Below, one piece after another: positions 13,826 through 42,081 of a DNA stretch of 64,000 nt; positions within the stretch are counted from its first letter, which is position 1, and the number at the start of each line of letters is the position of its first letter. Origin of the DNA: Rugalucina vietnamica (taxonomy: Eukaryota; Mollusca; Bivalvia; Lucinida; Lucinidae); NCBI GenBank assembly GCA_964017185.1, contig OZ024878.1, positions 14,207,351-14,271,350 of the forward strand, in the 5' to 3' direction. Made by a program: the position numbers and the translations under genes. The notes below the pieces were generated by a model that did no database searches, was not told the origin of the DNA, and saw nothing but the letters and a program-made list of their open reading frames with translations.

Positions 13826-13834
13826 GCCTTCCAG
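13826..13834 (+). repeat. Left 9-bp target-site duplication of the giant foldback
   Basis: GCCTTCCAG directly precedes ACGAACGTCAAGTTAG, the first bases of the inverted repeat. The identical 9-mer follows the mirrored end at 42073-42081. Confidence 0.85.
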
Positions 13835-13989
13835 ACGAACGTCAAGTTAGTTGTCGGTTGTCGGTTGACGGTTGACTATTCAAAAAACTAAGTTATTTTT
13901 GGTCAACTTTGCACTTAGCTTTTTTCTGCCACTATTCGATCTTAGTTTTTTTGTGTCAAAATCAAAGTTTTTTCTATGTTGGAAAAAAA

Positions 13990-16900
13990 GTCGAACTTAG
14001 TTTTTCGAATAGTCAACCGACAACTAGTTGTCAGTTGACTATTCGGACTTAGTTTTTTTGGGTCAAAATCAAAGTTTTTTCTATGTTGGAAAAAAATCGA
14101 ACTTAGTTTTTCGAATAGTCAACCGACAACTAGTTGTCAGTTGACTATTCGGACTTAGTTTTTTTGGGTCAAAATCAAAGTTTTTTCTATGTTGGAAAAA
14201 AATCGAACTTAGTTTTTCGAATAGTCAACCGACAACTATTTGTCGGTTGACTATTCGGACTTAGTTTTTTTGGGTCAAAATCAAAGTTTTTTCTATGTTG
14301 GAAAAAAATCGAACTTAGTTTTTCGAATAGTCAACCGACAACTAGTTGTCAGTTGACTATTCGGACTTAGTTTTTTTGGGTCAAAATCAAAGTTTTTTCT
14401 ATGTTGGAAAAAAAACGAACTTAGTTTTTCGAATAGTCAACCGACAACTAGTTGTCAGTTGACTATTCGGACTTAGTTTTTTTGGGTCAAAATCAAAGTT
14501 TTTTCTATGTTGGAAAAAAATCGAACTTAGTTTTTCGAATAGTCAACCGACAACTAGTTGTCAGTTGACTATTCGGACTTAGTTTTTTTTGGGTCAAAAT
14601 CAAAGTTTTTTCTATGTTGGAAAAAAATCGAACTTAGTTTTTCGAATAGTCAACCGACAACTAGTTGTCAGTTGACTATTCGGACTTAGTTTTTTTTGGG
14701 TCAAAATCAAAGTTTTTTCTATGTTGGAAAAAAATCGAAGTTAGTTTTTCGAATAGTCAACCGACAACTAGTTGTCGGTTGACTATTCGGACTTAGTTTT
14801 TTTGGGTCAAAATCAAAGTTTTTTCTATGTTGGAAAAAAATCGAACTTAGTTTTTCGAATAGTCAACCGACAACTAGTTGTCAGTTGACTATTCGGACTT
14901 AGTTTTTTTGGGTCAAAATCAAAGTTTTTTCTATGTTGGAAAAAAATCGAACTTAGTTTTTCGAATAGTCAACCGACAACTAGTTGTCAGTTGACTATTC
15001 GGACTTAGTTTTTTTGGGTCAAAATCAAAGGTTTTTCTATGTTGGAAAAAAATCGAACTTAGTTTTTCGAATAGTCAACCGACAACTAGTTGTCAGTTGA
15101 CTATTCGGACTTAGTTTTTTTGGGTCAAAATCAAAGTTTTTTCTATGTTGGAAAAAATCGAACTTAGTTTTTCGAATAGTCAACCGACAACTAGTTGTCA
15201 GTTGACTATTCGGACTTAGTTTTTTTGGGGTCAAAATCAAAGTTTTTTCTATGTTGGAAAAAAATCGAACTTAGTTTTTCGAATAGTCAACCGACAACTA
15301 GTTGTCAGTTGACTATTCGGACTTAGTTTTTTTGGGTTAAAATCAAAGTTTTTTCTATGTTGGAAAAAAATCGAACTTAGTTTTTCGAATAGTCAACCGA
15401 CAACTAGTTGTCGGTTGACTATTCGGACTTAGTTTTTTTGGGTCAAAATCAAAGTTTTTTCTATGTTGGAAAAAAATCGAACTTAGTTTTTCGAATAGTC
15501 AACCGACAACTAGTTGTCAGTTGACTATTCGGACTTAGTTTTTTTGGGTCAAAATCAAAGTTTTTTCTATGTTGGAAAAAAATCGAACTTAGTTTTTCGA
15601 ATAGTCAACCGACAACTAGTTGTCGGTTGACTATTCGGACTTAGTTTTTTTTGGGTCAAAATCAAAGTTTTTTCTATGTTGGAAAAAAATCGAACTTAGT
15701 TTTTCGAATAGTCAACCGACAACTAGTTGTCAGTTGACTATTCGGACTTAGTTTTTTTGGGTCAAAATCAAAGTTTTTTCTATGTTCGAAAAAAATCGAA
15801 CTTAGTTTTTCGAATAGTCAACCGACAACTAGTTGTCAGTTGACTATTCGGACTTAGTTTTTTTGGGTCAAAATCAAAGTTTTTTCTATGTTGGAAAAAA
15901 ATCGAACTTAGTTTTTCGAATAGTCAACCGACAACTAGTTGTCAAGTGACTATTCGGACTAAGTTATTTTGGGTCAAAAACTAAAGTTTTTTCTATGTTG
16001 GAAAAAAATCGAACTTAGTTTTTCGAATAGTCAACCGACAACTAGTTGTCAGTTGACTATTCGGACTTAGTTTTTTTGTGTCAAAATCAAAGTTTTTTCT
16101 ATGTTGGAAAAAAATCGAACTTAGTTTTTCGAATAGTCAACCGACAACTAGTTGTCAGTTGACTATTCGGACTTAGTTTTTTTGGGTCAAAATCAAAGTT
16201 TTTTCTATGTTGGAAAAAAATCGAACTTAGTTTTTCGAATAGTCAACCGACAACTAGTTGTCGGTTGACTATTCGGACTTAGTTTTTTTTGGGTCAAAAT
16301 CAAAGTTTTTTCTATGTTGGAAAAAAATCGAACTTAGTTTTTCGAATAGTCAACCGACAACTAGTTCAGTTGACTATTCGGACTTAGGTTTTTTTGGGTC
16401 AAAATCAAAGTTTTTTCTATGTTGGAAAAAAATCGAACTTAGTTTTTCGAATAGTCAACCGACAACTAGTTGTCAGTTGACTATTCGGACTTAGTTTTTT
16501 TTGGGTCAAAATCAAAGTTTTTTCTATGTTGGAAAAAAATCGAACTTAGTTTTTCGAATAGTCAACCGACAACTAGTTGTCAGTTGACTATTCGGACTTA
16601 GTTTTTTTTGGGTCAAAATCAAAGTTTTTTCTATGTTGGAAAAAAATCGAACTTAGTTTTTCGAATAGTCAACCGACAACTAGTTGTCAGTTGACTATTC
16701 GGACTTAGTTTTTTTGGGTCAAAATCAAAGTTTTTTCTATGTTGGAAAAAAATCGAACTTAGTTTTTCGAATAGTCAACCGACAACTAGTTGTCAGTTGA
16801 CTATTCGGACTTAGTTTTTTGGGGTCAAAATCAAAGTTTTTTCTATGTTGGAAAAAAATCGAACTTAGTTTTTCGAATAGTCAACCGACAACTAGTTGTC

Positions 16901-19900
16901 AGTTGACTATTCGGACTTAGTTTTTTTGGGTCAAAATCAAAGTTTTTTCTATGTTGGAAAAAAATCGAACTTAGTTTTTCGAATAGTCAACCGACAACTA
17001 GTTGTCAGTTGACTATTCGGACTTAGTTTTTTTGGGTCAAAATCAAAGTTTTTTCTATGTTGGAAAAAAAACGAACTTAGTTTTTCGAATAGTCAACCGA
17101 CAACTAGTTGTCAGTTGACTATTCGGACTTAGTTTTTTTGTGTCAAAATCAAAGTTTTTTCTATGTTGGAAAAAAATCGAACTTAGTTTTTCGAATAGTC
17201 AACCGACAACTAGTTGTCAGTTGACTATTCGGACTTAGTTTTTTTGGGTCAAAATCAAAGTTTTTTCTATGTTGGAAAAAAATCGAACTTAGTTTTTCGA
17301 ATAGTCAACCGACAACTAGTTGTCAGTTGACTATTCGGACTTAGTTTTTTTTGGGTCAAAATCAAAGTTTTTTCTATGTTGGAAAAAAATCGAACTTAGT
17401 TTTTCGAATAGTCAACCGACAACTAGTTGTCGGTTGACTATTCGGACTTAGTTTTTTTTTGGGTCAAAATCAAAGTTTTTTCTATGTTGGAAAAAAATCG
17501 AACTTAGTTTTTCGAATAGTCAACCGACAACTAGTTGTCAGTTGACTATTCGGACTTAGTTTTTTTGGGTCAAAATCAAAGTTTTTTCTATGTTGGAAAA
17601 AATCGAACTTAGTTTTTCGAATAGTCAACCGACAACTAGTTGTCAGTTGACTATTCGGACTTAGTTTTTTTGGGTCAAAATCAAAGTTTTTTCTATGTTG
17701 GAAAAAAATCGAACTTAGTTTTTCGAATAGTCAACCGACAACTAGTTGTCAGTTGACTATTCGGACTTAGTTTTTTTGTGTCAAAATCAAAGTTTTTTCT
17801 ATGTTGGAAAAAAATCGAACTTAGTTTTTCGAATAGTCAACCGACAACTAGTTGTCAGTTGACTATTCGGACTTAGTTTTTTTGGGTCAAAATCAAAGTT
17901 TTTTCTATGTTGGAAAAAAATCGAACTTAGTTTTTCGAATAGTCAACCGACAACTAGTTGTCAGTTGACTATTCGGACTTAGTTTTTTTTGGGTCAAAAT
18001 CAAAGTTTTTTCTATGTTGGAAAAAAATCGAACTTAGTTTTTCGAATAGTCAACCGACAACTAGTTGTCGGTTGACTATTCGGACTTAGTTTTTTTTGGG
18101 TCAAAATCAAAGTTTTTTCTATGTTGGAAAAAAATCGAGCTTAGTTTTTCGAATAGTCAACCGACAACTAGTTGTCAGTTGACTATTCGGACTTAGTTTT
18201 TTTTGGGTCAAAATCAAAGTTTTTTCTATGTTGGAAAAAAATCGAACTTAGTTTTTCGAATAGTCAACCGACAACTAGTTGTCAGTTGACTATTCGGACT
18301 TAGTTTTTTTGGGTCAAAATCAAAGTTTTTTCTATGTTGGAAAAAAATCGAACTTAGTTTTTCGAATAGTCAACCGACAACTAGTTGTCAGTTGACTATT
18401 CGGACTTAGTTTTTTTGGGTCAAAATCAAAGTTTTTTCTATGTTGGAAAAAAATCGAACTTAGTTTTTCGAATAGTCAACCGATAACTAGTTGTCAAGTG
18501 ACTATTCGGACTTAGTTATTTTGGGTCAAAATCAAAGTTTTTTCTATGTTGGAAAAAAATCGAACTTAGTTTTTCGAATAGTCAACCGACAACTAGTTGT
18601 CAGTTGACTATTCGGACTTAGTTTTTTTGGGTCAAAATCAAAGTTTTTTCTATGTTGGAAAAAAATCGAACTTAGTTTTTCGAATAGTCAACCGACAACT
18701 AGTTGTCAGTTGACTATTCGGACTTAGTTTTTTTTGGGTCAAAATCAAAGTTTTTTCTATGTTGGAAAAAAATCGAACTTAGTTTTTCGAATAGTCAACC
18801 GACAACTAGTTGTCAGTTGACTATTCGGACTTAGTTTTTTTGGGTTAAAATCAAAGTTTTTTCTATGTTGGAAAAAAATCGAACTTAGTTTTTCGAATAG
18901 TCAACCGACAACTAGTTGTCGGTTGACTATTCGGACTTAGTTTTTTTGGGTCAAAATCAAAGTTTTTTTCTATGTTGGAAAAAAATCGAACTTAGTTTTT
19001 CGAATAGTCAACCGACAACTAGTTGTCGGTTGACTATTCGGACTTAGTTTTTTTGGGTCAAAATCAAAGTTTTTTCTATGTTGGAAAAAAATCGAACTTA
19101 GTTGCCGAATAGTCAACCGACAACTAGTTGTCAGTTGACTATTCGGACTTAGTTTTTTTTGGGTCAAAATCAAAGTTTTTTCTATGTTGGAAAAAAATCG
19201 AACTTAGTTTTTCGAATAGTCAACCGACAACTAGTTGTCAGTTGACTATTCGGACTTAGTTTTTTTGGGTCAAAATCAAAGTTTTTTCTATGTTGGAAAA
19301 AAATCGAACTTAGTTTTTCGAATAGTCAACCGACAACTAGTTGTCAGTTGACTATTCGGACTTAGTTTTTTTGGGCCAAAATCAAAGTTTTCTCTATGTT
19401 GGAAAAAAATCGAACTTAGTTTTTCGAATAGTCAACCGACAACTAGTTGTCAGTTGACTATTCGGACTTAGTTTTTTTGGGTCAAAATCAAAGTTTTTTC
19501 TATGTTGGAAAAAAATCGAACTTAGTTTTTCGAATAGTCAACCGACAACTAGTTGTCAAGTGACTATTCGGACTTAGTTTTTTTGGGTCAAAATCAAAGT
19601 TTTTTCTATGTTGGAAAAAAATCGAACTTAGTTTTTCGAATAGTCAACCGACAACTAGTTGTCTATTCGGACTTAGTTTTTTTGGGTCAAAATCAAAGTT
19701 TTTTCTATGTTGGAAAAAAATCGAACTTAGTTTTTCGAATAGTCAACCGACAACTAGTTGTCAGTTGACTATTCGGACTTAGTTTTTTTTGGGTCAAAAT
19801 CAAAGTTTTTTCTATGTTGGAAAAAAATCGAACTTAGTTTTTCGAATAGTCAACCGACAACTAGTTGTCAGTTGACTATTCGGACTTAGTTTTTTTGGGT

Positions 19901-20685
19901 CAAAATCAAAGTTTTTTCTATGTTGGAAAAAAATCGAACTTAGTTTTTCGAATAGTCAACCGACAACTAGTTGTCAGTTGACTATTCGGACTTAGTTTTT
20001 TTGGGGTCAAAATCAAAGTTTTTTCTATGTTGGAAAAAAATCGAACTTAGTTTTTCGAATAGTCAACCGACAACTAGTTGTCAGTTGACTATTCGGACTT
20101 AGTTTTTTTTGGGTCAAAATCAAAGTTTTTTCTATGTTGGAAAAAAATCGAACTTAGTTTTTCGAATAGTCAATCGACAACTAGTTGTCAGTTGACTATT
20201 CGGACTTAGTTTTTTTGGGTCAAAATCAAAGTTTTTTCTATGTTGGAAAAAAATCGAACTTAGTTTTTCGAATAGTCAACCGACAACTAGTTGTCAGTTG
20301 ACTATTCGGACTTAGTTTTTTTTGGGTCAAAATCAAAGTTTTTTCTATGTTGGAAAAAAATCGAACTTAGTTTTTCGAATAGTCAACCGACAACTAGTTG
20401 TCAGTTGACTATTCGGACTTAGTTTTTTTGGGTTAAAATCAAAGTTTTTTCTATGTTGGAAAAAAATCGAACTTAGTTTTTCGAATAGTCAACCGACAGC
20501 TAGTTGTCAGTTGACTATTCGGACTTAGTTTTTTTGGGTCAAAATCAAAGTTTTCTCTATGTTGGAAAAAAATCGAACTTAGTTTTTCGAATAGTCAACC
20601 GACAACTAGTTGTCAGTTGACTATTCGGACTTAGTTTTTTTGGGTCAAAATCAAAGTTTTTTCTATGTTGGAAAAAAATCAGCAG
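13990..20685 (+). repeat. 106-bp satellite array, left arm (~63 copies)
   Basis: Successive ATTCGGACTTAG landmarks are 106 bp apart. Each monomer holds a 40-bp near-perfect palindrome starting CGAATAGTCAACCGACAACT and centred on CAACTAGTTG, followed by CGGACTTAG, GGGTCAAAATCAAAG and TCTATGTTGGAAAAAA. Variation is mainly in T- and A-run length and in CAGTTG versus CGGTTG in the right half of the palindrome; the CGGTTG form is a perfect palindrome. Apparent open frames here are repeat artefacts. Confidence 0.97.
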
Positions 20686-20800
20686 AGTGAAGTTAGTTTG
20701 TTTTTCGTTTTTCGTTATTCGACATTCAAGATCAGGTGAAGTTAGTTTGTTTTTCGTTTTTCGTTATTCGTTTTTCGTTATTCGTTTTTCGTTTTTCGAC
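20686..20800 (+). repeat. Junction block between the two satellites, left copy
   Basis: CAGCAGAGTGAAGTTAGTTTG is followed by GTTTTTCGTTATTCG-type words, then a second GTGAAGTTAGTTTG and more TTTTTCG words, ending at the first 52-bp monomer. It is mirrored at 32785-32905 with no difference that I can see. Confidence 0.9.
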
Positions 20801-23522
20801 ATTCGAACTGGGACCGAATTTCGTATTTTGACATTCTAAATCCCATTTTGACATTCGAACTGGGATGGAATTTCGTATTTTGACATTCAAAATCCTATTT
20901 TTACATTCGAACTGGGACCGAATTTCTTATTTTGACATTCAAAATCCCATTTTGACATTCGAACTGGGACCGAATTTCGTATTTTGACATTCAAAATCCA
21001 AATCCTATTTTGACATTCGAACTGGGACCGAATTTCGTATTTTGACATTCAAAATCCTATTTTGACATTCGAACTGGGACCGAATTTCGTATTTTGACAT
21101 TCAAAATCCTATTTTGACATTCGAACTGGGACCGAATTTCGTATTTTGACATTCAAAATCCTATTTTGACATTCGAGCTGGGACCGAATTTCTTATTTTG
21201 ACATTCAAAATCCTATTTTGACATTCGAACTGGGACCGAATTTCTTATTTTGACATTCAAAATCCTATTTTGACATTCGAACTGGGATCGAATTTCTTAT
21301 TTTGACATTCAAAATCCTATTTTGACATTCGAACTGGGACGGAATTTCGTATTTTGACATTCAAAATCCTATTTTGACATTCGAACTGGGACGGAATTTC
21401 GTATTTTGACATTCAAAATCCTATTTTGACATTCGAAATGGGACCGAATTTCTTATTTTGACATTCAAAATCCCATTTTGACATTCGAACTCGGACCGAA
21501 TTTCGTATTTTGACATTCAAAATCCCATTTTGACATTCGAACTGGGACCGAATTTCGTATTTTGACATTCAAAATCCTATTTTGACATTCGAACTGGGAC
21601 CGAATTTCGTATTTTGACATTCAAAAACCTATTTTGACATTCGAACTTGGACCGAATTTCGTATTTTGACATTCAAAATCCTATTTTGACTTTCGAACTG
21701 GGGACGAATTTCGTATTTTGACATTCAAAATCCTATTTTGACATTCGAACTGGGACCGAATTTCGTATTTTGACATTCAAAATCCTATTTTGACATTAGA
21801 ACTGGGACCGAATTTCGTATTTTGACATTCAAAATCCTATTTTGACATTCGAGCTGGGACCGAATTTCGTATTTTGACATTCAAAATCCTATTTTGACAT
21901 TCGAACTGGGACCGAATTTCTTATTTTGACATTCAAAATCCTATTTTGACATTCGAACTGGGACCGAATTTCTTATTTTGACATTCAAAATCCTATTTTG
22001 ACATTCGAACTGGGACCGAATTTCGTATTTTGACATTCAAAATCCTATTTTGACATTCGAACTGGGACCGAATTTCGTGTTTTGACATTCAAAATCCTAT
22101 TTTGACATTCGAACTGGGACCGAATTTCGTATTTTGACATTCAAAATCCTATTTTGACATTCGAACTGGGACCGAATTTCGTATTTTGACATTCAAAATC
22201 CTATTTTGACATTCGAACTGAGACGGAATTTCGTATTTTGACATTCGAAATCCTATTTTGACATTCGAACTTGGACCGAATTTCTTATATTGACATTCAA
22301 AATCCTATTTTGACATTCGAACTTGGACCGAATTTCGTATTTTGACATTCAAAATCCTATTTTGACATTCGAACTGGGACCGAATTTCGCATTTTGACAT
22401 TCAAAATCCTATTTTGACATTCGAACTGGGACCGAATTTCGTATTTTGACATTCAAAATCCTATTTTGACATTCGAACTGGGACCGAATTTCGTATTTTG
22501 ACATTCAAAATCCTATTTTGACATTCGAACTGGGACCGAATTTCGTATTTTGACATTCAAAATCCTATTTTGACATTCGAACTGGGACCGAATTTCGTAT
22601 TTTGACATTCAAAATCCTATTTTGACATTCGAACTTGGACCGAATTTCTTATTTTGACATTCAAAATCCTATTTTGACATTCGAACTGGGACCGAATTTC
22701 GTATTTTGACATTCAAAATCCTATTTTGACATTCGAACTGGGACCGAATTTCGTATTTTGACATTCAAAATCCTATTTTGACATTCGAACTGGGACCGAA
22801 TTTCGTATTTTGACATTCAAAATCCTATTTTGACATTCGAACTGGGACCGAATTTCGTATTTTGACATTCAAAATCCTATTTTGACATTCGAACTGGGAC
22901 CGAATTTCGTATTTTGACATTCAAAATCCTATTTTGACATTCGAACTGGGACAAAATTTCTTATTTTGACAATCAAAATCCTATTTTGACATTCGATTTG
23001 GCCTTGAATATGCTATTTTGATATTCAAAATACTATTTTGACATTCTATTTGGTCAGGAATATGCTATTTTGATATTCAAAATCCTATTTTGACATTCCA
23101 TTTGGTCAGAAATATGCTATTTTGACATTCAATATCCTGTTTTGACATTCCATTTGGTGAGGAATCTGCTATTTTGATATTCAAAATCCTATTTTGACAT
23201 TCAAATTTGCCAAGTATATGCTATTTTGATATTCAAAATCCTATTTTGACATTCTGTTTGGTCAAGAATATGCTATTTTGATATTTGGTAGTGGTCGCCC
23301 GTTCAGATTCGTTGGTTTTCCCCTGGTTCTCCGAGCTCCTCCACTACGTTGGACCACATAACGCCAACATCCGCGCCTTCAAGAATGCGTATATAAGTTC
23401 AATGAGCTTTCTGTGTGATTGAAATAAAATAAACCTTTTTAGTTTGATATTCAAAATCCTATTTTGACATTCGATTTTGTCAAGCATATGCTAGTTTGAT
23501 ATTCAAAATCCTATTTGACAGG

Positions 23523-23525
<3 letters not shown>
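20800..23525 (+). repeat. 52-bp satellite array, left arm
   Basis: The unit is GAACTGGGACCGAATTTCGT followed by ATTTTGACATTCAAAATCCT and ATTTTGACATTC, period 52 bp, about 45 copies to 22980. From 22980 to 23525 the units are much more diverged (for example TTTGGTCAGGAATATGCTAT). These diverged units have no counterpart at the inner end of the right arm. A 160-bp foreign insertion lies at 23284-23443. Confidence 0.95.
23284..23443 (+). other. Unique insertion with a polyadenylation-like signal
   Basis: A non-repetitive segment interrupts a diverged 52-bp unit, entering after TTTTGATAT and leaving before TTTGATAT. It contains TTCCCCTGGTTCTCCGAGCT, resembling a phrase common in 3' ends of animal non-LTR retrotransposons, and ends near AAATAAAATAAACC, which includes AATAAA. 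It could be a short 3'-end retro-insertion; identity is uncertain. Confidence 0.45.

Positions 23526-23526
<1 letters not shown>

Positions 23527-23561
<35 letters not shown>
23527..23561 (+). repeat. Poly-T tract
   Basis: A run of about 35 T marks the inner end of the left arm and the start of the central loop. Confidence 0.9.
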
Positions 23562-23562
<1 letters not shown>

Positions 23563-24339
23563 TATGTTATAATGTGCATACCCATATTGTTTGTTAAGGG
23601 GTGCTCACACCACAGCGTATAGCGCCAGCGTATGACGACGTATGCGACATTTTGTCCATACGTTGGTGTACGTTGCACATGTTCGGCATAAATTTTGCAT
23701 AAGTTACGGGTACGCTACAATACGCTGTCATACGTTGTCGTGCGCCGTGTACATGCACAAAATTTCCAACGTATGGCGACGTACTGATAATACGTTACTA
23801 ATAAGTTAGGCGTACGCAACGAATACGCTTATATGCATAAGTTCACGAACGTTACCTGTAAGTAACTCATACGCTCGCATACGTTGTCATACGCCAAAGC
23901 TCTCCTGTATTTTTAGCGTATGAGAAGCGTATTACCAACGTACGAGCAGCGTTTGCCTGGCGCACTCGGAACGTATGCAGCGTATGTGAAACGTGTGAAG
24001 AACGTTCGCAGCGTATGCGCAACTTACGCGTAGCGCATTGGTCGGGATTTTATATATAAAAATGGAAGGAATAGGTACTGTGTTCATGATTAAATAGTCA
24101 CACGGAAGCATCAAAATGGTATACTCGACCAAAAACAATCTGCACAATTGTGTGTATGGCTAAAATTTTATCCACTGTTATATTATCGCTTGTCAAGATA
24201 ATATTTTTGTAAGGACGGGATGCCTTCAAAGCTCATATTGAATGGCCCTTTATAAAATTGTCGACATATAAAGTTCTAAAGGTTTTTATACCCCGCCACT
24301 TGAAAAAGTGCCGTGTATTATGTTATACCCTCCGCAAAA

Positions 24340-25180
24340 AATTGCGCTCGAGTGTCCGTCCGTCCGTCTGTCTGTCCGTCCGTCAGCGCTTCGTTTCCGG
24401 GCTCTATCTTGAGCATTTATTGACCAATTTTCTTCAAACTTTGTATAGGAGTTCATATTAAGAAGGAGTGGTTTGTGATTGAAGATGAGTAAATTTCGTC
24501 AAATATGTGCAGAGTTATGGCCCTTGATTTACGTTAAAATTGCGTTTCCGGGCTCTATCTTGAGCATTTATTGACCAATTTTATTCAAACTTTGTATAGG
24601 AGTCAATATTAGGAAGGAGTGGTTTGGGATTGAAGATGAGCAATTATTGATCAATTTTCTTCAGACATAGTATAGGAATTCATATTAGGAAGGAGTGGTT
24701 TGGGATTGAATATGGGTAAATTTCGTCAAATAAGTACAGAGTTATAGCCCTTGTTTTACGTTAAAATTTCATTTCTAGGCTCTTTGAGCATTTATTGACC
24801 AATTTTCTTCAAAGTTTGTGTAGGAGTTCACATCAGGAAAAAGTGGTTGGGGATTGAAGCTAGATAAATTTCGTCAAAATAACTACAGAGTTATGGCCCT
24901 TGATTTACGTTAAAATGTCATTTTGATTATTTATCTTGATTTTTATTGACAATTTTTCTTATCAAATTTTGTATAGGAGTTCATATCAGGAAGGAGTGGT
25001 TTGGGATTGAAGATGGGTAATTGTTTTCAAATAAATACAGAGTAAATGCCCTTGATTTATGTAGCAATTTCTTTTCCATGCTCTATCTTGAGCATCTTTA
25101 GACCAGTTTGCTTCATCCTTTGTATATGAATTCATATCTGGAAGGTATGGTTTGGTATTGTAGATTAATGTCATCAAGAT
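24340..25180 (+). repeat. ~150-bp tandem repeat, bivalve type
   Basis: After a GTCCGTCCGTCTGTCTGTCC leader, the phrase TTGACCAATTTTCTTCAAAC recurs at 24418, 24570, 24646 (half-spacing), 24795, 24947 and 25097. Each is followed by TAGGAGTTCATATTAGGAAG, GTGGTTTGGGATTGAAGATG and GTTATGGCCCTTGATTTACG. I recognise this as a dispersed repeat common in bivalve introns and intergenic DNA. It is non-coding. Confidence 0.8.
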
Positions 25181-25246
25181 ATTCTGTGTATTTGTACTAA
25201 ATTAAATTTGCGTGGCGGGTATCATGCATGCCTGCAGCGCTTTTAT

Positions 25247-25248
25247 TT

Positions 25249-25283
<35 letters not shown>

Positions 25284-25505
25284 TTTTTTGTATTTTTTTT
25301 TTTCAATTCAGTTTAACGTCCCTTTCAAGATTATTTCAACTCATATTATAAGACGGATCAATCGAGAGGTGGGGCAAAACTGACCCATAAACTAATTTCA
25401 ACCTAATTATAGGAAATGATCCTTCTGAGAAACGATATAAGAACTCCACAAAATGCACCTGAAGAATCAGGTATGTAGATTTCCTTAATCATTTTTCTTT
25501 TTCTT

Positions 25506-25584
<79 letters not shown>

Positions 25585-25588: not shown

Positions 25589-25611
25589 TCGCTTTTTACT
25601 GGATATGTCTA

Positions 25612-30650: not shown

Positions 30651-30654
30651 ACGA

Positions 30655-32785
30655 CGTTTGAATGTCAAAATACGAAATTCGGTCCCAGATCGAATGTCAT
30701 AATAGGATTTTGAATGTCAAAATACGAAATTCGGTCCCAGTTCGAATGTCAAAATAGGATTTTGAATGTCAAAATACGAAATTCGGTCCCAGTTCGAATG
30801 TCAAAATAGGATTTTGAATGTCAAAAGTTCAAATGTCAAAATAGGATTTTGAAAGTCAAAATACGAAATTCGGTCCCAGTTCGAATGTCAAAATAGGATT
30901 TTGAATGTCAAAATACGAAATTCGGTCCCAGTTCGAATGTCAAAATAGGATTTTGAATGTCAAAATAAGAAATTCGGACCCAGTTCGAATGTCAAAATAG
31001 GATTTTGAATGTCAAAATAAGAAATTCGGTCCCAGTTCGAATGTCAAAATAGGATTTTGAATGTCAAAATAAGAAATTCGGTCCCAGTTCGAATGTCAAA
31101 ATAGGATTTTGAATGTCAAAATACGAAATTCGGTCCCAGTTCGAATGTCAAAATAGGATTTTGAATGTCAAAATAAGAAATTCGGTCCAAGTTCGAATGT
31201 CAAAATAGGATTTTGAATGTCAAAATACGAAATTCTGTCCAAGTTCGAATGTCAAAATAGGATTTTGAATGTCAAAATAAGAAATTCGGTCCCATTTCGA
31301 ATGTCAAAATAGGATTTTGAATGTCAAAATAAGAAATTCGGTCCAAGTTCAAATGTCAAAATAGGATTTTGAATGTCAAAATAAGAAATTCGGTCCAAGT
31401 TCGAATGTCAAAATAGGATTTTGAATGTCAAAATAAGAAATTCGGTCCCAGTTCGAATGTCAAAATAGGATTTTGAATGTCAAAATAAGAAATTCGGTCC
31501 AAGTTCGAATGTCAAAATAGGATTTTGAATGTCAAAATAAGAAATTCGGCCCCAGTTCGAATGTCAAAATAGGATTTTGAATGTCAAAATACGAAATTTG
31601 GTCCAAGTTCGAATGTCAAAATAGGATTTTGAATGTCAAAATACGAAATTCGGTCCCAGTTCGAATGTCAAAATAGGATTTTGAATGTCAAAATACGAAA
31701 TTCGGTCCCAGTTCGAATGTCAAAATAGGATTTTGAATGTCAAAATAGGATTTTGAATGTCAAAATAAGAAATTCGGTCCCAGTTCGAATGTCAAAATAG
31801 GATTTTGAATGTCAAAATAAGAAATTCGGTCCCAGTTCGAATGTCAAAATAGGATTTTGAATGTCAAAATACGAAATTCGGTCCCAGTTCGAATGTCAAA
31901 ATAGGATTTTGAATGTCAAAATACGAAATTCGGTCCCAGTTCGAAAGTCAAAATAGGATTTTGAATGTCAAAATACGAAATTCGGTCCAAGTTCGAATGT
32001 CAAAATAAGTTTTTGAATGTCAAAATACGAAATTCGGTCCCAGTTCGAATGTCAAAATAGGATTTTGAATGTCAAAATACGAAATTCGGTCCCAGTTCGA
32101 ATGTCAAAATGGGATTTTGAATGTCAAAATACGAAATTCGGTCCGAATTCGAATGTCAAAATGGGATTTTGAATGTCAAAATAAGAAATTCGGTCCCATT
32201 TCGAATGTCAAAATAGGATTTTGAATGTCAAAATACGAAATTCCGTCCCAGTTCGAATGTCAAAATAGGATTTTGAATGTCAAAATACGAAATTCCGTCC
32301 CAGTTCGAATGTCAAAATAGGATTTTGAATGTCAAAATAAGAAATTCGATCCCAGTTCGAATGTCAAAATAGGATTTTGAATGTCAAAATAAGAAATTCG
32401 GTCCCAGTTCGAATGTCAAAATAGGATTTTGAATGTCAAAATAAGAAATTCGGTCCCAGCTCGAATGTCAAAATAGGATTTTGAATGTCAAAATACGAAA
32501 TTCGGTCCCAGCTCGAATGTCAAAATAGGATTTTGAATGTCAAAATACGAAATTCGGTCCCAGTTCGAATGTCAAAATAGGATTTTGAATGTCAAAATAC
32601 GAAATTCGGTCCCAGTTCGAATGTCAAAATGGGATTTTGAATGTCAAAATAAGAAATTCGGTCCCAGTTCGAATGTCAAAATAGGATTTTGAATGTCAAA
32701 ATACGAAATTCCATCCCAGTTCGAATGTCAAAATGGGATTTAGAATGTCAAAATACGAAATTCGGTCCCAGTTCGAATGTCGAAA
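30655..32785 (-). repeat. 52-bp satellite array, right arm (~40 copies)
   Basis: Reverse complement of the left array: TTCGGTCCCAGTTCGAATGT, CAAAATAGGATTTTGAATGT, CAAAATACGAAA. Variants such as GAAATTCGGTCCAAG and TAAGAAATTC occur in both arms but in different orders. The heavily diverged units seen at 22980-23525 are absent. Confidence 0.95.
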
Positions 32786-32905
32786 AACGAAAAACGAATA
32801 ACGAAAAACGAATAACGAAAAACGAAAAACAAACTAACTTCACCTGATCTTGAATGTCGAATAACGAAAAACGAAAAACAAACTAACTTCACTCTGCTGA
32901 TTTTT
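32785..32905 (-). repeat. Junction block between the two satellites, right copy
   Basis: CGAAAAACGAAAAACGAATA words and two CAAACTAACTTCAC segments, ending at TCTGCTGATTTTTTTCCAAC. It mirrors 20686-20800 without a visible difference. Confidence 0.9.
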
Positions 32906-35900
32906 TTCCAACATAGAAAAAACTTTGATTTTAACCCAAAAAAACTAAGTCCGAATAGTCAACTGACAACTAGTTGTCGGTTGACTATTCGAAAAACTAA
33001 GTTCGATTTTTTTCCAACATAGAAAAAACTTTGATTTTGACCCCAAAAAAAACTAAGTCCGAATAGTCAGCTGACAACTAGTTGTCGGTTGACTATTCGA
33101 AAAACTAAGTTCGATTTTTTTCCAACATAGAAAAAACTTTGATTTTGACACAAAAAAACTAAGTCCGAATAGTCAACTGACAACTAGTTGTCGGTTGACT
33201 ATTCGAAAAACTAAGTTCGATTTTTTTCCAACATAGAAAAAACTTTGATTTTGACCCAAAAAAACTAAGTCCGAATAGTCAACTGACAACTAGTTGTCGG
33301 TTGACTATTCCAAAAACTAAGTTCGATTTTTTTCCAACATAGAAAAAACTTTGATTTTGACACAAAAAAACTAAGTCCGAATAGTCAACTGACAACTAGT
33401 TGTCGGTTGAATATTCCAAAAACTAAGTTCGATTTTTTTCCAACATAGAAAAAACTTTGATTTTGACCCCAAAAAAACTAAGTCCGAATAGGCAACTGAC
33501 AACTAGTTGTCGGTTGACTAGTATTCGAAAAACTAAGTTCGATTTTTTTCCAACATAGAAAAAACTTTGATTTTGACCCAAAAAAACTAAGTCCGAATAG
33601 TCAACCGACAACTAGTTGTCGGTTGACTATTCGAAAAACTAAGTTCGATTTTTTTCCAACATAGAAAAAACTTTGATTTTGACCCAAAAAAACTAAGTCC
33701 GAATAGTCAACTGACAACTAGTTGTCGGTTGACTATTCGAAAAACTAAGTTCGATTTTTTTCCAACATAGAAAAAACTTTGATTTTGACCCAAAAAAACT
33801 AAGTCCGAATAGTCAACTGACAACTAGTTGTCGGTTGACTATTCGAAAAACTAAGTTCGATTTTTTTCCAACATAGAAAAAACTTTGATTTTGACCCAAA
33901 AAAACTAAGTCCGAATAGTCAACCGACAACTAGTTGTCGGTTGACTATTCGAAAAACTAAGTTCGATTTTTTTCCAACATAGAAAAAACTTTGATTTTAA
34001 CCCAAAAAAACTAAGTCCGAATAGTCAACTGACAACTAGTTGTCGGTTGACTATTCGAAAAACTAAGTTCGATTTTTTTCCAACATAGAAAAAACTTTGA
34101 TTTTGACCCAAAAAAACTAAGTCCGAATAGTCAACCGACAACTAGTTGTCGGTTGACTATTCGAAAAACTAAGTTCGATTTTTTTCCAACATAGAAAAAA
34201 CTTTGATTTTGACCCAAAAAAACTAAGTCCGAATAGTCAACTGACAACTAGTTGTCGGTTGACTATTCGAAAAACTAAGTTCGATTTTTTTCCAACATAG
34301 AAAAAACTTTGATTTTGACCCAAAAAAACTAAGTCCGAATAGTCAACTGACAACTAGTTGTCGGTTGACTATTCGAAAAACTAAGTTCGATTTTTTTCCA
34401 ACATAGAAAAAACTTTGATTTTGACCAAAAAAACTAAGTCTGAATAGTCAACTGACAACTAGTTGTCGGTTGACTATTCCAAAAACTAAGTTCGATTTTT
34501 TTCCAACATAGAAAAAACTTTGATTTTGACAAAAAAAAAACTAAGTCTGAATAGTCAACTGACAACTAGTTGTCGGTTGACTATTCGAAAAACTTAGTTC
34601 GATTTTTTTCCAACATAGAAAAAACTTTGATTTTGACCCAAAAAAACTAAGTCCGAATAGTCAACTGACAACTAGTTGTCGGTTGACTATTCGAAAAACT
34701 AAGTTCGATTTTTTTCCAACATAGAAAAAACTTTGATTTTGACCCAAAAAAACTAAGTCCGAATAGTCAACCGACAACTAGTTGTCGGTTGACTATTCGA
34801 AAAACTAAGTTCGATTTTTTTCCAACATAGAAAAAACTTTGATTTTGACCCAAAAAAACTAAGTCCGAATAGTCAACCGACAACTAGTTGTCGGTTGACT
34901 ATTCGAAAAACTAAGTTCGATTTTTTTCCAACATAGAAAAAACTTTGATTTTGACCCAAAAAAACTAAGTCCGAATAGTCAACTGACAACTAGTTGTCGG
35001 TTGACTATTCGAAAAACTAAGTTCGATTTTTTTCCAACATAGAAAAAACTTTGATTTTGACCCAAAAAAACTAAGTCCGAATAGTCAACTGACAACTAGT
35101 TGTCGGTTGACTATTCGAAAAACTAAGTTCGATTTTTTTCCAACATAGAAAAAACTTTGATTTTGACCCAAAAAAACTAAGTCCGAATAGTCAACCGACA
35201 ACTAGTTGTCGGTTGACTATTCGAAAAACTAAGTTCGATTTTTTTCCAACATAGAAAAAACTTTGATTTTAACCCAAAAAAACTAAGTCCGAATAGTCAA
35301 CTGACAACTAGTTGTCGGTTGACTATTCGAAAAACTAAGTTCGATTTTTTTCCAACATAGAAAAAACTTTGATTTTGACCCAAAAAAACTAAGTCCGAAT
35401 AGTCAACCGACAACTAGTTGTCGGTTGACTATTCGAAAAACTAAGTTCGATTTTTTTCCAACATAGAAAAAACTTTGATTTTGACCCAAAAAAACTAAGT
35501 CCGAATAGTCAACTGACAACTAGTTGTCGGTTGACTATTCGAAAAACTAAGTTCGATTTTTTTCCAACATAGAAAAAACTTTGATTTTGACCCAAAAAAA
35601 CTAAGTCCGAATAGTCAACTGACAACTAGTTGTCGGTTGACTATTCGAAAAACTAAGTTCGATTTTTTTCCAACATAGAAAAAACTTTGATTTTGACCAA
35701 AAAAACTAAGTCTGAATAGTCAACTGACAACTAGTTGTCGGTTGACTATTCCAAAAACTAAGTTCGATTTTTTTCCAACATAGAAAAAACTTTGATTTTG
35801 ACAAAAAAAAAACTAAGTCTGAATAGTCAACTGACAACTAGTTGTCGGTTGACTATTCGAAAAACTTAGTTCGATTTTTTTCCAACATAGAAAAAACTTT

Positions 35901-38900
35901 GATTTTGACCCAAAAAAACTAAGTCCGAATAGTCAACTGACAACTAGTTGTCGGTTGACTATTCGAAAAACTAAGTTCGATTTTTTTCCAACATAGAAAA
36001 AACTTTGATTTTGACCCAAAAAAACTAAGTCCGAATAGTCAACCGACAACTAGTTGTCGGTTGACTATTCGAAAAACTAAGTTCGATTTTTTTCCAACAT
36101 AGAAAAAACTTTGATTTTGACCCAAAAAAAAACTAAGTCCGAATAGTCAACTGACAACTAGTTGTCGGTTGACTATTCGAAAAACTAAGTTCGATTTTTT
36201 TCCAACATAGAAAAAACTTTGATTTTGACACAAAAAAACTAAGTCCGAATAGTCAACTGACAACTAGTTGTCGGTTGACTATTCCAAAAACTAAGTTCGA
36301 TTTTTTTCCAACATAGAAAAAACTTTGATTTTGACACAAAAAAACTAAGTCCGAATAGTCAACTGACAACTAGTTGTCGGTTGACTATTCCAAAAACTAA
36401 GTTCGATTTTTTTCCAACATAGAAAAAACTTTGATTTTGACACAAAAAAACTAAGTCCGAATAGTCAACTGACAACTAGTTGTCGGTTGACTATTCCAAA
36501 AACTAAGTTCGATTTTTTTCCAACATAGAAAAAACTTTGATTTTGACCCCAAAAAAACTAAGTCCGAATAGTCAACTGACAACTAGTTGTCGGTTGACTA
36601 TTCGAAAAACTAAGTTCGATTTTTTTCCAACATAGAAAAAACTTTGATTTTGACCCAAAAAAACTAAGTCCGAATAGTCAACCGACAACTAGTTGTCGGT
36701 TGACTATTCGAAAAACTAAGTTCGATTTTTTTTCCAACATAGAAAAAACTTTGATTTTAACCAAAAAAAAACTAAGTCCGAATAGTCAACTGACAACTAG
36801 TTGTCGGTTGACTATTCGAAAAACTAAGTTCGATTTTTTTCCAACATAGAAAAAACTTTGATTTTGACCCAAAAAAAACTAAGTCCGAATAGTCAACTGA
36901 CAACTAGTTGTCGGTTGACTATTCGAAAAACTAAGTTCGATTTTTTTCCAACATAGAAAAAACTTTGATTTTGACCCAAAAAAACTAAGTCCGAATAGTC
37001 AACTGACAACTAGTTGTCGGTTGACTATTCGAAAAACTAAGTTCGATTTTTTTCCAACATAGAAAAAACTTTGATTTTGACCCAAAAAAACTAAGTCCGA
37101 ATAGTCAACCGACAACTAGTTGTCGGTTGACTATTCGAAAAACTAAGTTCGATTTTTTTCCAACATAGAAAAAACTTTGATTTTGACCCAAAAAAACTAA
37201 GTCCGAATAGTCAACTGACAACTAGTTGTCGGTTGACTATTCGAAAAACTAAGTTCGATTTTTTTCCAACATAGAAAAAACTTTGATTTTGACACAAAAA
37301 AACTAAGTCCGAATAGTCAACTGACAACTAGTTGTCGGTTGACTATTCGAAAAACTAAGTTCGATTTTTTTCCAACATAGAAAAAACTTTGATTTTGACC
37401 CAAAAAAACTAAGTCCGAATAGTCAACCGACAACTAGTTGTCGGTTGACTATTCGAAAAACTAAGTTCGATTTTTTTCCAACATAGAAAAAACTTTGATT
37501 TTAACCCAAAAAAACTAAGTCCGAATAGTCAACTGACAACTAGTTGTCGGTTGACTATTCGAAAAACTAAGTTCGATTTTTTTCCAACATAGAAAAAACT
37601 TTGATTTTGACCCAAAAAAACTAAGTCCGAATAGTCAACCGACAACTAGTTGTCGGTTGACTATTCGAAAAACTAAGTTCGATTTTTTTCCAACATAGAA
37701 AAAACTTTGATTTTGACCCAAAAAAACTAAGTCCGAATAGTCAACTGACAACTAGTTGTCGGTTGACTATTCGAAAAACTAAGTTCGATTTTTTTCCAAC
37801 ATAGAAAAAACTTTGATTTTGACCCAAAAAAACTAAGTCCGAATAGTCAACTGACAACTAGTTGTCGGTTGACTATTCGAAAAACTAAGTTCGATTTTTT
37901 TCCAACATAGAAAAAACTTTGATTTTGACCAAAAAAACTAAGTCTGAATAGTCAACTGACAACTAGTTGTCGGTTGACTATTCCAAAAACTAAGTTCGAT
38001 TTTTTTCCAACATAGAAAAAACTTTGATTTTGACAAAAAAAAAACTAAGTCTGAATAGTCAACTGACAACTAGTTGTCGGTTGACTATTCGAAAAACTTA
38101 GTTCGATTTTTTTCCAACATAGAAAAAACTTTGATTTTGACCCAAAAAAACTAAGTCCGAATAGTCAACTGACAACTAGTTGTCGGTTGACTATTCGAAA
38201 AACTAAGTTCGATTTTTTTCCAACATAGAAAAAACTTTGATTTTGACCCAAAAAAACTAAGTCCGAATAGTCAACTGACAACTACTTGTCGGTTGACTAT
38301 TCCAAAAACTAAGTTCGATTTTTTTCCAACATAGAAAAAACTTTGATTTTGACACAAAAAAACTAAGTCCGAATAGTCAACTGACAACTAGTTGTCGGTT
38401 GACTATTCGAAAAACTAAGTTCGATTTTTTCCAACATAGAAAAAACTTTGATTTTAACCCAAAAAAACTAAGTCCGAATAGTCAACCGACAACTAGTTGT
38501 CGGTTGACTATTCGAAAAACTAAGTTCGATTTTTTTCCAACATAGAAAAAACTTTGATTTTGACACAAAAAAACTAAGTCCGAATAGTCAACTGACAACT
38601 AGTTGTCGGTTGACTATTCGAAAAACTAAGTTCGATTTTTTTCCAACATAGAAAAAACTTTGATTTTGACACAAAAAAACTAAGTCCGAATAGTCAACTG
38701 ACAACTAGTTGTCGGTTGACTATTCCAAAAACTAAGTTCGATTTTTTTCCAACATAGAAAAAACTTTGATTTTGACCCAAAAAAACTAAGTCCGAATAGT
38801 CAACCGACAACTAGTTGTCGGTTGACTATTCGAAAAATTAAGTTCGATTTTTTTCCAACATAGAAAAAACTTTGATTTTAACCCAAAAAAACTAAGTCCG

Positions 38901-41900
38901 AATAGTCAACTGACAACTAGTTGTCGGTTGACTATTCGAAAAACTAAGTTCGATTTTTTTCCAACATAGAAAAAACTTTGATTTTGACCAAAAAAACTAA
39001 GTCTGAATAGTCAACTGACTAGTTGTCGGTTGACTATTCCAAAAACTAAGTTCGATTTTTTTCCAACAAAGAAAAAACTTTGATTTTGACAAAAAAAAAA
39101 CTAAGTCTGAATAGTCAACTGACAACTAGTTGTCGGTTGACTATTCGAAAAACTTAGTTCGATTTTTTTCCAACATAGAAAAAACTTTGATTTTGACCCA
39201 AAAAAACTAAGTCCGAATAGTCAACTGACAACTAATTGTCGGTTGACTATTCGAAAAACTAAGTTCGATTTTTTTCCAACATAGAAAAAACTTTGATTTT
39301 GACCCAAAAAAAACTAAGTCCGAATAGTCAACTGACAACTAGTTGTCGGTTGACTATTCGAAAAACTAAGTTCGATTTTTTTCCAACATAGAAAAAACTT
39401 TGATTTTGACCCAAAAAAACTAAGTCCGAATAGTCAACTGACAACTAGTTGTCGGTTGACTATTCGAAAAACTAAGTTCGATTTTTTTCCAACATAGAAA
39501 AAACTTTCATTTTGACCCAAAAAAAACTAAGTCCGAATAGTCAACTGACAACTAGTTGTCGGTTGACTATTCGAAAAACTAAGTTCGATTTTTTTTCCAA
39601 CATAGAAAAAACTTTGATTTTGACACAAAAAAACTAAGTCCGAATAGTCAACTGACAACTAGTTGTCGGTTGACTATTCGAAAAACTAAGTTCGATTTTT
39701 TTCCAACATAGAAAAAACTTTGATTTTGACCCAAAAAAACTAAGTCCGAATAGTCAACTGACAACTAGTTGTCGGTTGACTATTCCAAAAACTAAGTTCG
39801 ATTTTTTTCCAACATAGAAAAAACTTTGATTTTGACACAAAAAAACTAAGTCCGAATAGTCAACTGACAACTAGTTGTCGGTTGACTATTCCAAAAACTA
39901 AGTTCGATTTTTTTCCAACATAGAAAAAACTTTGATTTTGACCCCAAAAAAACTCAGTCCGAATAGTCAACTGACAACTAGTTGTCGGTTGACTATTCGA
40001 AAAACTAAGTTCGATTTTTTTCCAACATAGAAAAAACTTTGATTTTGACCCCAAAAAAACTAAGTCCGAATAGTCAACTGACTAGTTGTCGGTTGACTAT
40101 TCGAAAAACTAAGTTCGATTTTTTTCCAACATAGAAAAAACTTTGATTTTGACCCAAAAAAACTAAGTCCGAATAGTCAACTGACAACTAGTTGTCGGTT
40201 GACTATTCGAAAAACTAAGTTCGATTTTTTTCCAACATAGAAAAAACTTTGATTTTGACCCAAAAAAACTAAGTCCGAATAGTCAACTGACAACTAGTTG
40301 TCGGTTGACTATTCGAAAAACTAAGTTCGATTTTTTTCCAACATAGAAAAAACTTTGATTTTGACCAAAAAAAACTAAGTCTGAATAGTCAACTGACAAC
40401 TAGTTGTCGGTTGACTATTCCAAAAACTAAGTTCGATTTTTTTCCAACATAGAAAAAACTTTGATTTTGACAAAAAAAAAACTAAGTCTGAATAGTCAAC
40501 TGACAACTAGTTGTCGGTTGACTATTCGAAAAACTAAGTTCGATTTTTTTCCAACATAGAAAAAACTTTGATTTTGACCCAAAAAAACTAAGTCCGAATA
40601 GTCAACTGACAACTAGTTGTCGGTTGACTATTCGAAAAACTAAGTTCGATTTTTTTCCAACATAGAAAAAACTTTGATTTTGACCCAAAAAAACTAAGTC
40701 CGAATAGTCAACCGACAACTAGTTGTCGGTTGACTATTCGAAAAACTAAGTTCGATTTTTTTCCAACATAGAAAAAACTTTGATTTTGACCCAAAAAAAA
40801 ACTAAGTCCTAATAGTCAACTGACAACTAGTTGTCGGTTGACTATTCGAAAAACTAAGTTCGATTTTTTTCAAACATAGAAAAAACTTTGATTTTGACAC
40901 AAAAAAACTAAGTCCGAATAGTCAACTGACAACTAGTTGTCGGTTGACTATTCGAAAAACTAAGTTCGATTTTTTTCCAACATAGAAAAAACTTTGATTT
41001 TGACACAAAAAAACTAAGTCCGAATAGTCAACTGACAACTAGTTGTCGGTTGACTATTCCAAAAACTAAGTTCGATTTTTTTCCAACATAGAAAAAACTT
41101 TGATTTTGACCCAAAAAAACTAAGTCCGAATAGTCAACTGACAACTAGTTGTCGGTTGACTATTCGAAAAACTAAGTTCGATTTTTTTCCAACATAGAAA
41201 AAACTTTGATTTTGACCCAAAAAAACTAAGTCCGAATAGTCAACTGACAACTAGTTGTCGGTTGACTATTCGAAAAACTAAGTTCGATTTTTTTCCAACA
41301 TAGAAAAAACTTTGATTTTGACCCAAAAAAACTAAGTCCGAATAGTCAACCGACAACTAGTTGTCGGTTGACTATTCGAAAAACTAAGTTCGATTTTTTT
41401 CCAACATAGAAAAAACTTTGATTTTAACCCAAAAAAAACTAAGTCCGAATAGTCAACTGACAACTAGTTGTCGGTTGACTATTCGAAAAACTAAGTTCGA
41501 TTTTTTTCCAACATAGAAAAAACTTTGATTTTGACCCAAAAAAAACTAAGTCCGAATAGTCAACTGACAACTAGTTGTCGGTTGACTATTCGAAAAACTA
41601 AGTTCGATTTTTTTCCAACATAGAAAAAACTTTGATTTTGACCCAAAAAAACTAAGTCCGAATAGTCAACTGACAACTAGTTGTCGGTTGACTATTCGAA
41701 AAACTAAGTTCGATTTTTTTCCAACATAGAAAAAACTTTGATTTTGACAAAAAAAACTAAGTCCGAATAGTCAACTGACAACTAGTTGTCGGTTGACTAT
41801 TCGAAAAACTAAGTTCGATTTTTTTCCAACATAGAAAAAACTTTGATTTTGACCCAAAAAAACTAAGTCCGAATAGTCAACTGACAACTAGTTGTCGGTT

Positions 41901-41985
41901 GACTATTCGAAAAACTAAGTTCGATTTTTTTCCAACATAGAAAAAACTTTGATTTTGACACAAAAAAACTAAGATCGAATAGTGG
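32906..41985 (-). repeat. 106-bp satellite array, right arm (~85 copies)
   Basis: Reverse complement of the left 106-bp array, about 22 units longer. It carries variants that I do not see in the left array: AAGTCTGAATAG for AAGTCCGAATAG, GAAAAACTTAGTTCG, and ACTATTCCAAAAAC. The TCTGAATAG variants recur as blocks at about 34437, 35706, 37941, 38998 and 40376, indicating higher-order duplication inside this arm. The left-arm palindrome and CAACTAGTTG centre are retained. Confidence 0.97.
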
Positions 41986-42072
41986 CAGAAAAAAGCTAAG
42001 TGCAAAGTTGACCAAAAATAACTTAGTTTTTTGAATAGTCAACCGACAACCGACAACTAACTTGACGTTCGT

Positions 42073-42081
42073 GCCTTCCAG
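42073..42081 (+). repeat. Right 9-bp target-site duplication of the giant foldback
   Basis: GCCTTCCAG directly follows TTGACGTTCGT, the mirrored terminus, and is identical to 13826-13834. Confidence 0.85.

What the first reader, a model, noticed from the sequence alone, without database searches (positions are those of the whole stretch)
13826..42081. A 28.2-kb satellite-armed foldback element with a perfect 9-bp target duplication
The structure is a giant inverted repeat whose arms are two ordered satellite arrays. Both outermost ends are ACGAACGTCAAGTTAG followed by the same unique block, and the flanks are an identical 9-mer, GCCTTCCAG. This says it moved as one unit, or was born from a smaller foldback that expanded its arms after insertion. 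FB-type and Mutator-like elements give 9-bp duplications (established), but satellites as arms on this scale and in this order are not something I know as described.
Basis: partly seen in the sequence, partly recalled or inferred. Interest (0 to 1): 0.92.

Follow-up and report, generated by a model that had tools for sequence, protein, structure and literature searches.

The report
Giant satellite-armed foldback transposon family
This 28-kb stretch is one copy of a family of DNA elements, 72 bp to 61 kb long, that share the same ends and mostly sit between matching 9-base duplications, so they likely jump as whole units; their arms are long satellite arrays whose outer part has apparently turned over much faster than the core they enclose.

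Summary
The window element (13835-42072) has inverted ends, two mirror-ordered satellite arrays per arm and a perfect 9-bp duplication. In its own genome the end motif recurs as convergent pairs. I examined 32 pairs: 24 with the window's end type (592 bp to 61 kb) and 8 with a sister end type (72 bp to 10.4 kb). Of these, 28 of 32 have a perfect 9-bp duplication; of 992 mismatched left/right combinations none does. A core marker lies in 13 of the 24 (capped list); the cores of four fully read copies differ by 0.5-0.6% with no shared substitutions. The inner 52-bp arrays keep monomer order between arms and copies; the outer 106-bp arrays mostly do not. So core and inner arrays moved together, while the outer satellite was re-sized during or after each jump (inferred). 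It works as a non-autonomous foldback transposon, closest to Tetris and Mutator/Foldback elements but with arms several times longer. No MULE, Merlin or KDZ domain found genome-wide lies inside any of the 32, so the transposase is unidentified. New variant of a known kind.

The parts
13826..13834 (+). left copy of the 9-bp target-site duplication GCCTTCCAG
13835..13943 (+). left terminal block, starting ACGAACGTCAAGTTAG; near-identical to most of the other ends compared
13931..20680 (+). left outer array, 106-bp satellite, 63.6 copies, 97% matches
20680..20800 (+). left 121-bp junction block between the two satellites
20794..23285 (+). left inner array, 52-bp satellite, inner edge degenerate
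23440..23520 (+). isolated degenerate 52-bp-type piece behind a ~150-bp unrelated insert
23286..30656 (.). core of about 7.4 kb without a recognisable protein domain in the ten ORFs scanned; holds nested inverted-repeat pieces (about 23596-26180, 26650-29945, 27850-28995, 30250-30650); ~99% identical in C1a, C1b and C2
30657..32785 (-). right inner array, 52-bp satellite, truncated at its inner edge
32779..32899 (-). right 121-bp junction block
32899..41983 (-). right outer array, 106-bp satellite, 85.6 copies; a run of eight monomer types occurs three times here and not in the left array
41971..42072 (-). right terminal block, ends CTAACTTGACGTTCGT
42073..42081 (+). right copy of the 9-bp target-site duplication GCCTTCCAG

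Best explanation
The feature is one copy of a dispersed family of foldback elements with shared ends and 9-bp target duplications, which is likely moved by cut-and-paste by a transposase supplied in trans (predicted to be of the Mutator type) and whose outer satellite arms would be re-sized during or soon after each move. Shown: shared ends, perfect 9-bp duplications at 28 of 32 end pairs, a shared core and shared inner-array order at different sites, outer arrays of different length and order, and no transposase-family domain of three families inside any pair. Inferred: the terminal block and the repeated motif GTTGTCGGTTGACTATTC (about two per 106-bp monomer, on opposite strands) are transposase binding sites; whole elements of 20-61 kb are excised and inserted; replication slippage, unequal exchange or gap repair through the repeats grows and shrinks the outer arrays; and the same process collapses some copies to a hairpin of 592, 111 or 72 bp.
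For: 59 exact end hits, reversed control 0; 83 hits of a 24-mer at up to 3 mismatches, control 0. 28 of 32 pairs have a perfect 9-bp duplication, against 0 of 992 mismatched combinations; 20 of the 22 pairs of 20 kb or more are perfect. 13 of 24 C-type pairs hold the 541-bp core marker. Cores of window, C1a, C1b and C2: 34-38 substitutions in 6.2-7.2 kb; 61 single-copy changes, no 2:2 site, i.e. a star. 52-bp arrays keep order: 17 of 21 arm comparisons beat all 60 shuffles, the other 4 are reached by 1 or 2 of 60; window left against right 0 of 300. 106-bp arrays lack shared order between the window's arms (27 of 300 and 256 of 300 shuffles reach the score at two gap costs). End block conserved. 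291 copies of the motif at up to 2 mismatches in the window element, none in the rest of the window. Three of 16 single ends examined are 21-58-bp remnants inside a repeated 9-mer (two perfect, one with one mismatch). A MULE in this genome has its own 9-bp duplication.
Against: Four of 32 pairs lack the perfect duplication: C1b (7 of 9 mismatched), C2 (3), A-C8 (5), A-C7b (2). One perfect duplication (C3a) lies in a TTTA microsatellite and says little. No autonomous copy: 0 of 59 MULE, 0 of 56 Merlin and 0 of 2 KDZ domain matches lie inside any of the 32 pairs, and the MULE match nearest to an end is 879 kb away. The one MULE whose ends I found has other ends (GGAAGTGTC...). Only 8 of 24 C-type and 7 of 8 A-type interiors were read in full or nearly so (C17a has an N gap), so a transposase of a family I did not search could be missed. 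The 106-bp monomers are more alike (97.5-97.9%) than the 52-bp ones (90-93%), so order is harder to see; the C3a macro-copies show that the test can see it. In C1b the two outer arrays do share order (0 of 20). Left and right ends of one element are no more alike than ends of different elements (603 of 5000 shuffles).
Confidence: 0.85

Rival explanations
1. Small foldback elements (like the 72-1009-bp copies) inserted, and the large ones grew in place by satellite expansion; nothing of 20 kb ever moved.
For: Copies of 72, 111, 260, 592, 730 and 1009 bp with perfect duplications exist; outer arrays have copy-specific length and order.
Against: The ~7.4-kb core with its nested pieces, the 121-bp junction blocks and the ordered 52-bp arrays are shared by copies at different sites, so a unit of at least about 10 kb must have moved. 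The length of the outer arrays at the moment of insertion stays unknown.
Confidence: 0.12
2. The copies spread by segmental duplication or ectopic recombination between satellite arrays, not by transposition.
For: Two large pairs (C1b, C2) have unlike flanks; Galileo has chimeric copies with unlike flanks (passage). C12 holds 6 of 24 C-type pairs, expected 1.2.
Against: Breakpoints fall on the same base in all 32 pairs, and 28 have a direct 9-mer duplication that differs between sites.
Confidence: 0.03
3. The moving enzyme is not a Mutator-type but another DDE transposase that makes about 9-bp duplications (Merlin, KDZ, a P relative or an undescribed family).
For: No MULE domain lies in or near the elements; the foldback shape is known to arise in different superfamilies (Galileo is a P relative).
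Against: 8-10-bp duplications together with tandem repeats in long TIRs are the Mutator/Foldback pattern in Tm1, Muta1 and, by its authors' suggestion, Tetris. No Merlin or KDZ match lies inside a pair.
Confidence: 0.35
4. Assembly artefact: hairpin reads or collapsed satellites produced the inverted arms.
For: Inverted satellites are hard to assemble; C17a has an N gap in its middle.
Against: Six large copies read in full (window, C1a, C1b, C2, C3a, C3b) hold no N and have unequal arms, unrelated flanks and a direct 9-mer duplication in four of the six.
Confidence: 0.02

Closest known systems
Tetris, foldback transposon of Drosophila virilis (PMC4079207; abstract and first parts of Results and Discussion read)
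   Same: Non-autonomous; end domain, then tandem repeats, then inner domain and a variable middle; 8-10-bp duplications; repeats share a short stretch with the end domain; repeats also found as longer satellite arrays of up to 66 copies.
   Different: Tetris TIRs reach 1,735 bp with ~220-bp repeats, and three structurally complete copies were reported. Here the window's arms are about 9.4 and 11.4 kb with two satellites in fixed order and a junction block; 22 of 32 end pairs span 20 kb or more, up to 61 kb; and outer and inner arrays differ in how well order is kept.
Tm1, Mutator/Foldback family of root-knot nematodes (PMC3169594; passages)
   Same: Composite TIRs with tandem repeats, 9-bp duplications at most copies, MITE-like small copies.
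   Different: 13-15-bp repeats, elements of about 1-2.6 kb in the passages, a Phantom-type transposase known, other end motifs.
Muta1 and other Aedes aegypti MULEs (PMC5225508; passages)
   Same: 8-9-bp duplications, long TIRs with subterminal tandem repeats (10 of 12 long-TIR families), non-autonomous derivatives.
   Different: Repeats of 9-15 bp; autonomous copies known.
Galileo of Drosophila (P superfamily; PMC3573991; passages)
   Same: Foldback-like, tandem repeats inside TIRs, independent change of the two TIRs, chimeric copies with unlike flanks.
   Different: TIRs of 18-1,250 bp; 7-bp target sequences.
Satellite-bearing Helentrons of oysters (PMC7492417; passages)
   Same: Satellite-like arrays carried by a mobile element.
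   Different: Rolling-circle elements without target duplication or long inverted arms.

Membership tests
Foldback elements (structural class) | long inverted arms built of tandem repeats | tested here: met
Foldback elements (structural class) | precise ends with a target-site duplication at independent copies | tested here: met
   28 of 32 pairs
Mutator (MULE) superfamily | 8-10-bp, mostly 9-bp, target-site duplication without strong consensus | tested here: met
   28 of 32 with exactly 9 bp; weak A/T preference at positions 4-6
Mutator (MULE) superfamily | MULE-domain transposase between the same ends | tested here: inconclusive
   59 MULE matches in the genome, 0 inside the 32 pairs, nearest 879 kb from an end; not every interior was read
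Mutator (MULE) superfamily | terminal sequence shared with an autonomous MULE of the genome | tested here: inconclusive
   6 of 59 MULE loci read (6 kb each): one has a TIR with a 9-bp duplication, but other ends; the other five gave none under this scan; 53 loci not read
P superfamily (Galileo type) | 7-bp target sequence | tested here: not met
   9 bp; the 7-bp value is from a passage
Helitron/Helentron | no target-site duplication | tested here: not met
Merlin superfamily | Merlin-type (DDE_Tnp_IS1595) transposase between the same ends | tested here: inconclusive
   56 matches in the genome, 0 inside the 32 pairs; a trans-acting partner is not excluded
KDZ superfamily | KDZ transposase between the same ends | tested here: inconclusive
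   2 matches in the genome, 0 inside the 32 pairs

The most novel reading that the evidence does not exclude
Each jump re-makes the outer satellite: transposition (through gap repair or slippage on palindromic 106-bp units that carry transposase sites) is itself the engine that grows and resets kilobase satellite arrays, so one end sequence yields elements from a 72-bp hairpin to a 61-kb giant, and the family is a satellite-making machine that seeds new arrays across the genome.
Probability: 0.35. Interest if true: 0.9.

Novelty: new variant of a known kind. Interest (0 to 1): 0.8.

Why it matters
How satellites are born and spread is an old question. Here many copies that differ by about 0.5% in a common core, each in its own 9-bp duplication, give a dated series in which satellite arrays of one sequence run from a few units to over 160 in a row; that allows array growth rate to be measured against a substitution clock inside one transposon family. 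It also bears on how large a DNA segment a foldback transposon can move: 20 end pairs of 20-61 kb have perfect duplications, and the hundreds-of-kb Ising TE between Drosophila foldbacks is the known extreme (passage, PMC6431247).

Tried and rejected
Assembly artefact, segmental duplication, Helitron and P-type membership: see rivals and membership rows. Element as carrier of a gene: ten core ORFs scanned against Pfam gave only sub-cut-off matches, as did ten flank ORFs; no Rfam match in the window. Autonomous partner: MULE, Merlin and KDZ searches gave no match inside a pair. Two odd single ends were followed inward and led to unrelated sequence. Pattern scans of viral contigs (106-bp piece) and genome contigs (end piece) found nothing. 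A protein search with a satellite reading frame found one protein of unnamed origin; its sequence resembles the reading frame of the sister end type's array. Species not identified: no call names it; I suspect a mollusc from recall only. Papers: besides those in Closest known systems I saw passages of PMC8268682, PMC6431247 and PMC10783647 (the last holds no mention of Tetris) and search listings only for the others. My paper searches showed no description of satellite arms at this scale in the open library, which lacks most subscription journals. Not used further: ages in years (no rate at hand).

Limits of counts: the core and junction searches score only the best 40 of 226 and 194 candidates, so 13 of 24 is a lower bound, and one of the 13 matches only 400 of 541 bases. 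Left out: the C1b.B 52-bp array (6 monomers). Left out: arrays with fewer than 10 monomers (C2.B2, C9). In one search, 14 of 120 comparisons beat all 20 shuffles: 6 are the C3a macro-copies, 1 is C1b left against right, and 7 have tiny scores (3-6), about what 120 tests would give by chance. In one search, 16 of the 17 single ends were examined, over about 300 bp each; besides the three remnants, one (L085) shows a one-mismatch recurrence at 254 bp that I take as chance. In one search one end (C12e left) departs after 36 bp because the outermost of two nearby end copies was taken.

Full report
OBSERVATION. The window element spans 13835-42072 and is flanked by GCCTTCCAG at 13826-13834 and 42073-42081. 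From each end inward come a terminal block, a 106-bp satellite array (63.6 and 85.6 copies), a 121-bp junction block and a 52-bp satellite array, then a core of about 7.4 kb. The arms are inverted relative to each other and unequal in length. About 72% of the element is satellite. The ten core ORFs scanned have no Pfam match over its cut-off.

THE FAMILY. The end motif has 59 exact hits in the window's own genome (1.09 Gb, 47 contigs); the same motif read backwards has none. A 24-mer with up to 3 mismatches has 83 hits, control 0. They form 32 convergent pairs and 17 singles (two further hits are extra end copies next to a pair). Twenty-four pairs carry the window's end type: 592 bp, 8.1 kb (with an N gap) and 22 pairs from 20.0 to 61.0 kb. 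Eight carry a sister end type (ACGAACGTAAAGTTAG): 72, 111, 260, 688, 730, 1009, 3360 and 10361 bp.

DUPLICATIONS. Of 32 pairs, 28 have a perfect 9-bp duplication; the failures are C1b, C2, A-C8 and A-C7b. Of 992 mismatched left/right combinations none is perfect and one has a single mismatch. Among the 22 pairs of 20 kb or more, 20 are perfect. One (C3a) lies in a TTTA microsatellite and is weak evidence. The duplications differ from each other and show only a weak A/T preference in the middle. Three of 16 single ends examined are remnants of 31, 58 and 21 bp between repeated 9-mers (the third with one mismatch), as expected of failed excision or internal deletion (that reading is inference).

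WHAT IS SHARED BETWEEN COPIES. Six large elements were read in full: window, C1a, C1b, C2, C3a, C3b. Window, C1a, C1b and C2 share the core (98.5-99.0% over their main blocks by BLAST) and the junction block and 52-bp arrays; C1b and C2 are inserted the other way round. Their cores differ by 34-38 substitutions; 61 sites are changed in one copy only and none groups two against two, a star that fits one source and separate moves. A 541-bp core marker lies in 13 of the 24 C-type pairs (14 hits), but also in 26 listed places outside them: part of it is a dispersed repeat and part belongs to copies without a detected partner end. C3a has the same ends and outer array but a 169-bp inner satellite, a 46-bp spacer and a ~3.2-kb unit repeated in tandem; a 3-kb sample of C17b matches its core. 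C3b has another core, which a 3-kb sample of C12b matches. C17a is 106-bp satellite throughout apart from an N gap. C9 (592 bp) is two ends and four units.

TWO TEMPOS. Monomer order of the 52-bp arrays is shared between arms and between sites: 17 of 21 comparisons beat all 60 shuffles and the other four are reached by 1-2 of 60; window left against right beats all 300. For the 106-bp arrays, window left against right is reached by 27 of 300 or 256 of 300 shuffles depending on gap cost. Across 16 arrays (120 comparisons, 20 shuffles each), clear shared order appears only among the C3a macro-copies, which serve as positive control, and between the two arms of C1b; seven more beat all shuffles with tiny scores, near the chance number. 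Outer arrays run from a few units to 163.6 (C1a). In the window's right array a run of eight monomer types occurs three times and is absent from the left. So while the cores gathered about 12-25 private substitutions each, the outer arrays lost common order. Caveat: 106-bp monomers are more alike, which lowers power.

MECHANISM. Ends with a constant block, direct 9-bp duplications and remnants point to cut-and-paste by a DDE transposase acting in trans (inference from established transposon biology). The motif GTTGTCGGTTGACTATTC of the terminal block recurs in both orientations in each 106-bp unit: 291 copies at up to 2 mismatches in the element, none in the rest of the window; the unit folds into a strong hairpin. 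Extra transposase sites in tandem TIR repeats are proposed for Galileo and Tetris (passages); here this is a prediction. Array growth by slippage, unequal exchange or gap repair is inferred.

TRANSPOSASE. MULE: 59 matches in the genome; Merlin: 56; KDZ: 2; none inside the 32 pairs. The MULE match nearest to an end is 879 kb away. One of six MULE loci read has a 25-bp perfect TIR and a 9-bp duplication (AACACTGAA), so MULEs here make 9-bp duplications, but its ends are GGAAGTGTC...; in the same scan, control stretches of the window scored up to 23 of 25, so only that perfect case is used. The superfamily therefore stays open; Mutator is favoured by duplication length and form.

DISTRIBUTION. 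Six of the 24 C-type pairs lie on C12, expected 1.2 (P = 0.0016; 0.007 allowing for choice of chromosome). The genome holds 2577 exact copies of a 65-base satellite piece, 1254 and 1323 on the two strands, of which 478 lie in seven elements read. Of 40 listed junction blocks 20 lie outside end-bearing pairs.

KNOWN KINDS. Tetris is the closest: same plan, TIRs up to 1,735 bp, 8-10-bp duplications, expanded arrays of its repeats. Tm1 and Muta1 show the Mutator link. What is new here is scale, two ordered satellites per arm, the size range in one family, the number of dated copies and the two tempos. Hence: new variant of a known kind.

Noticed in passing
C3:17477875-17508775 (L022-L025): Copy with a third, 169-bp satellite and a macro-repeat of about 3.2 kb (106-bp array + spacer + 169-bp array) repeated in tandem.
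   Followed up: partly
C12:17.4-24.0 Mb: Four large copies within 6.6 Mb, six on this contig: possible local hopping or a preferred region.
   Followed up: partly
C15:22.150-22.193 Mb, C10:54.097-54.119 Mb, C15:28.539-28.575 Mb, C4:7.444-7.471 Mb, C7:19.282-19.332 Mb: Convergent junction-block pairs without detected outer ends: degraded copies, or satellites that outlived their transposon ends.
   Followed up: no
C14:25966145-25972144 (L099): MULE with a 519-residue open frame around the domain, a perfect 25-bp TIR and a 9-bp duplication; not the partner by its ends.
   Followed up: partly
L082, L067, L088: Remnants of 31, 58 and 21 bp of the end between repeated 9-mers: excision footprints or collapsed copies.
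   Followed up: yes
C5:59602891-59602962 (L073): 72-bp hairpin made of two ends only, with a perfect 9-bp duplication.
   Followed up: yes
window 23286-23439: Insert of about 150 bp with an AATAAA-like end inside the 52-bp repeat edge, perhaps a small retroelement or solo LTR.
   Followed up: no
window 23596-29945: Nested inverted-repeat pieces in the core, rich in CGTACG/CGTATG words, like MITEs of other families.
   Followed up: partly
C1:94793244 (L061, L069): An end fragment about 0.8-1.8 kb from zinc-finger coding sequence that looks like an ovo gene (label from recall).
   Followed up: partly
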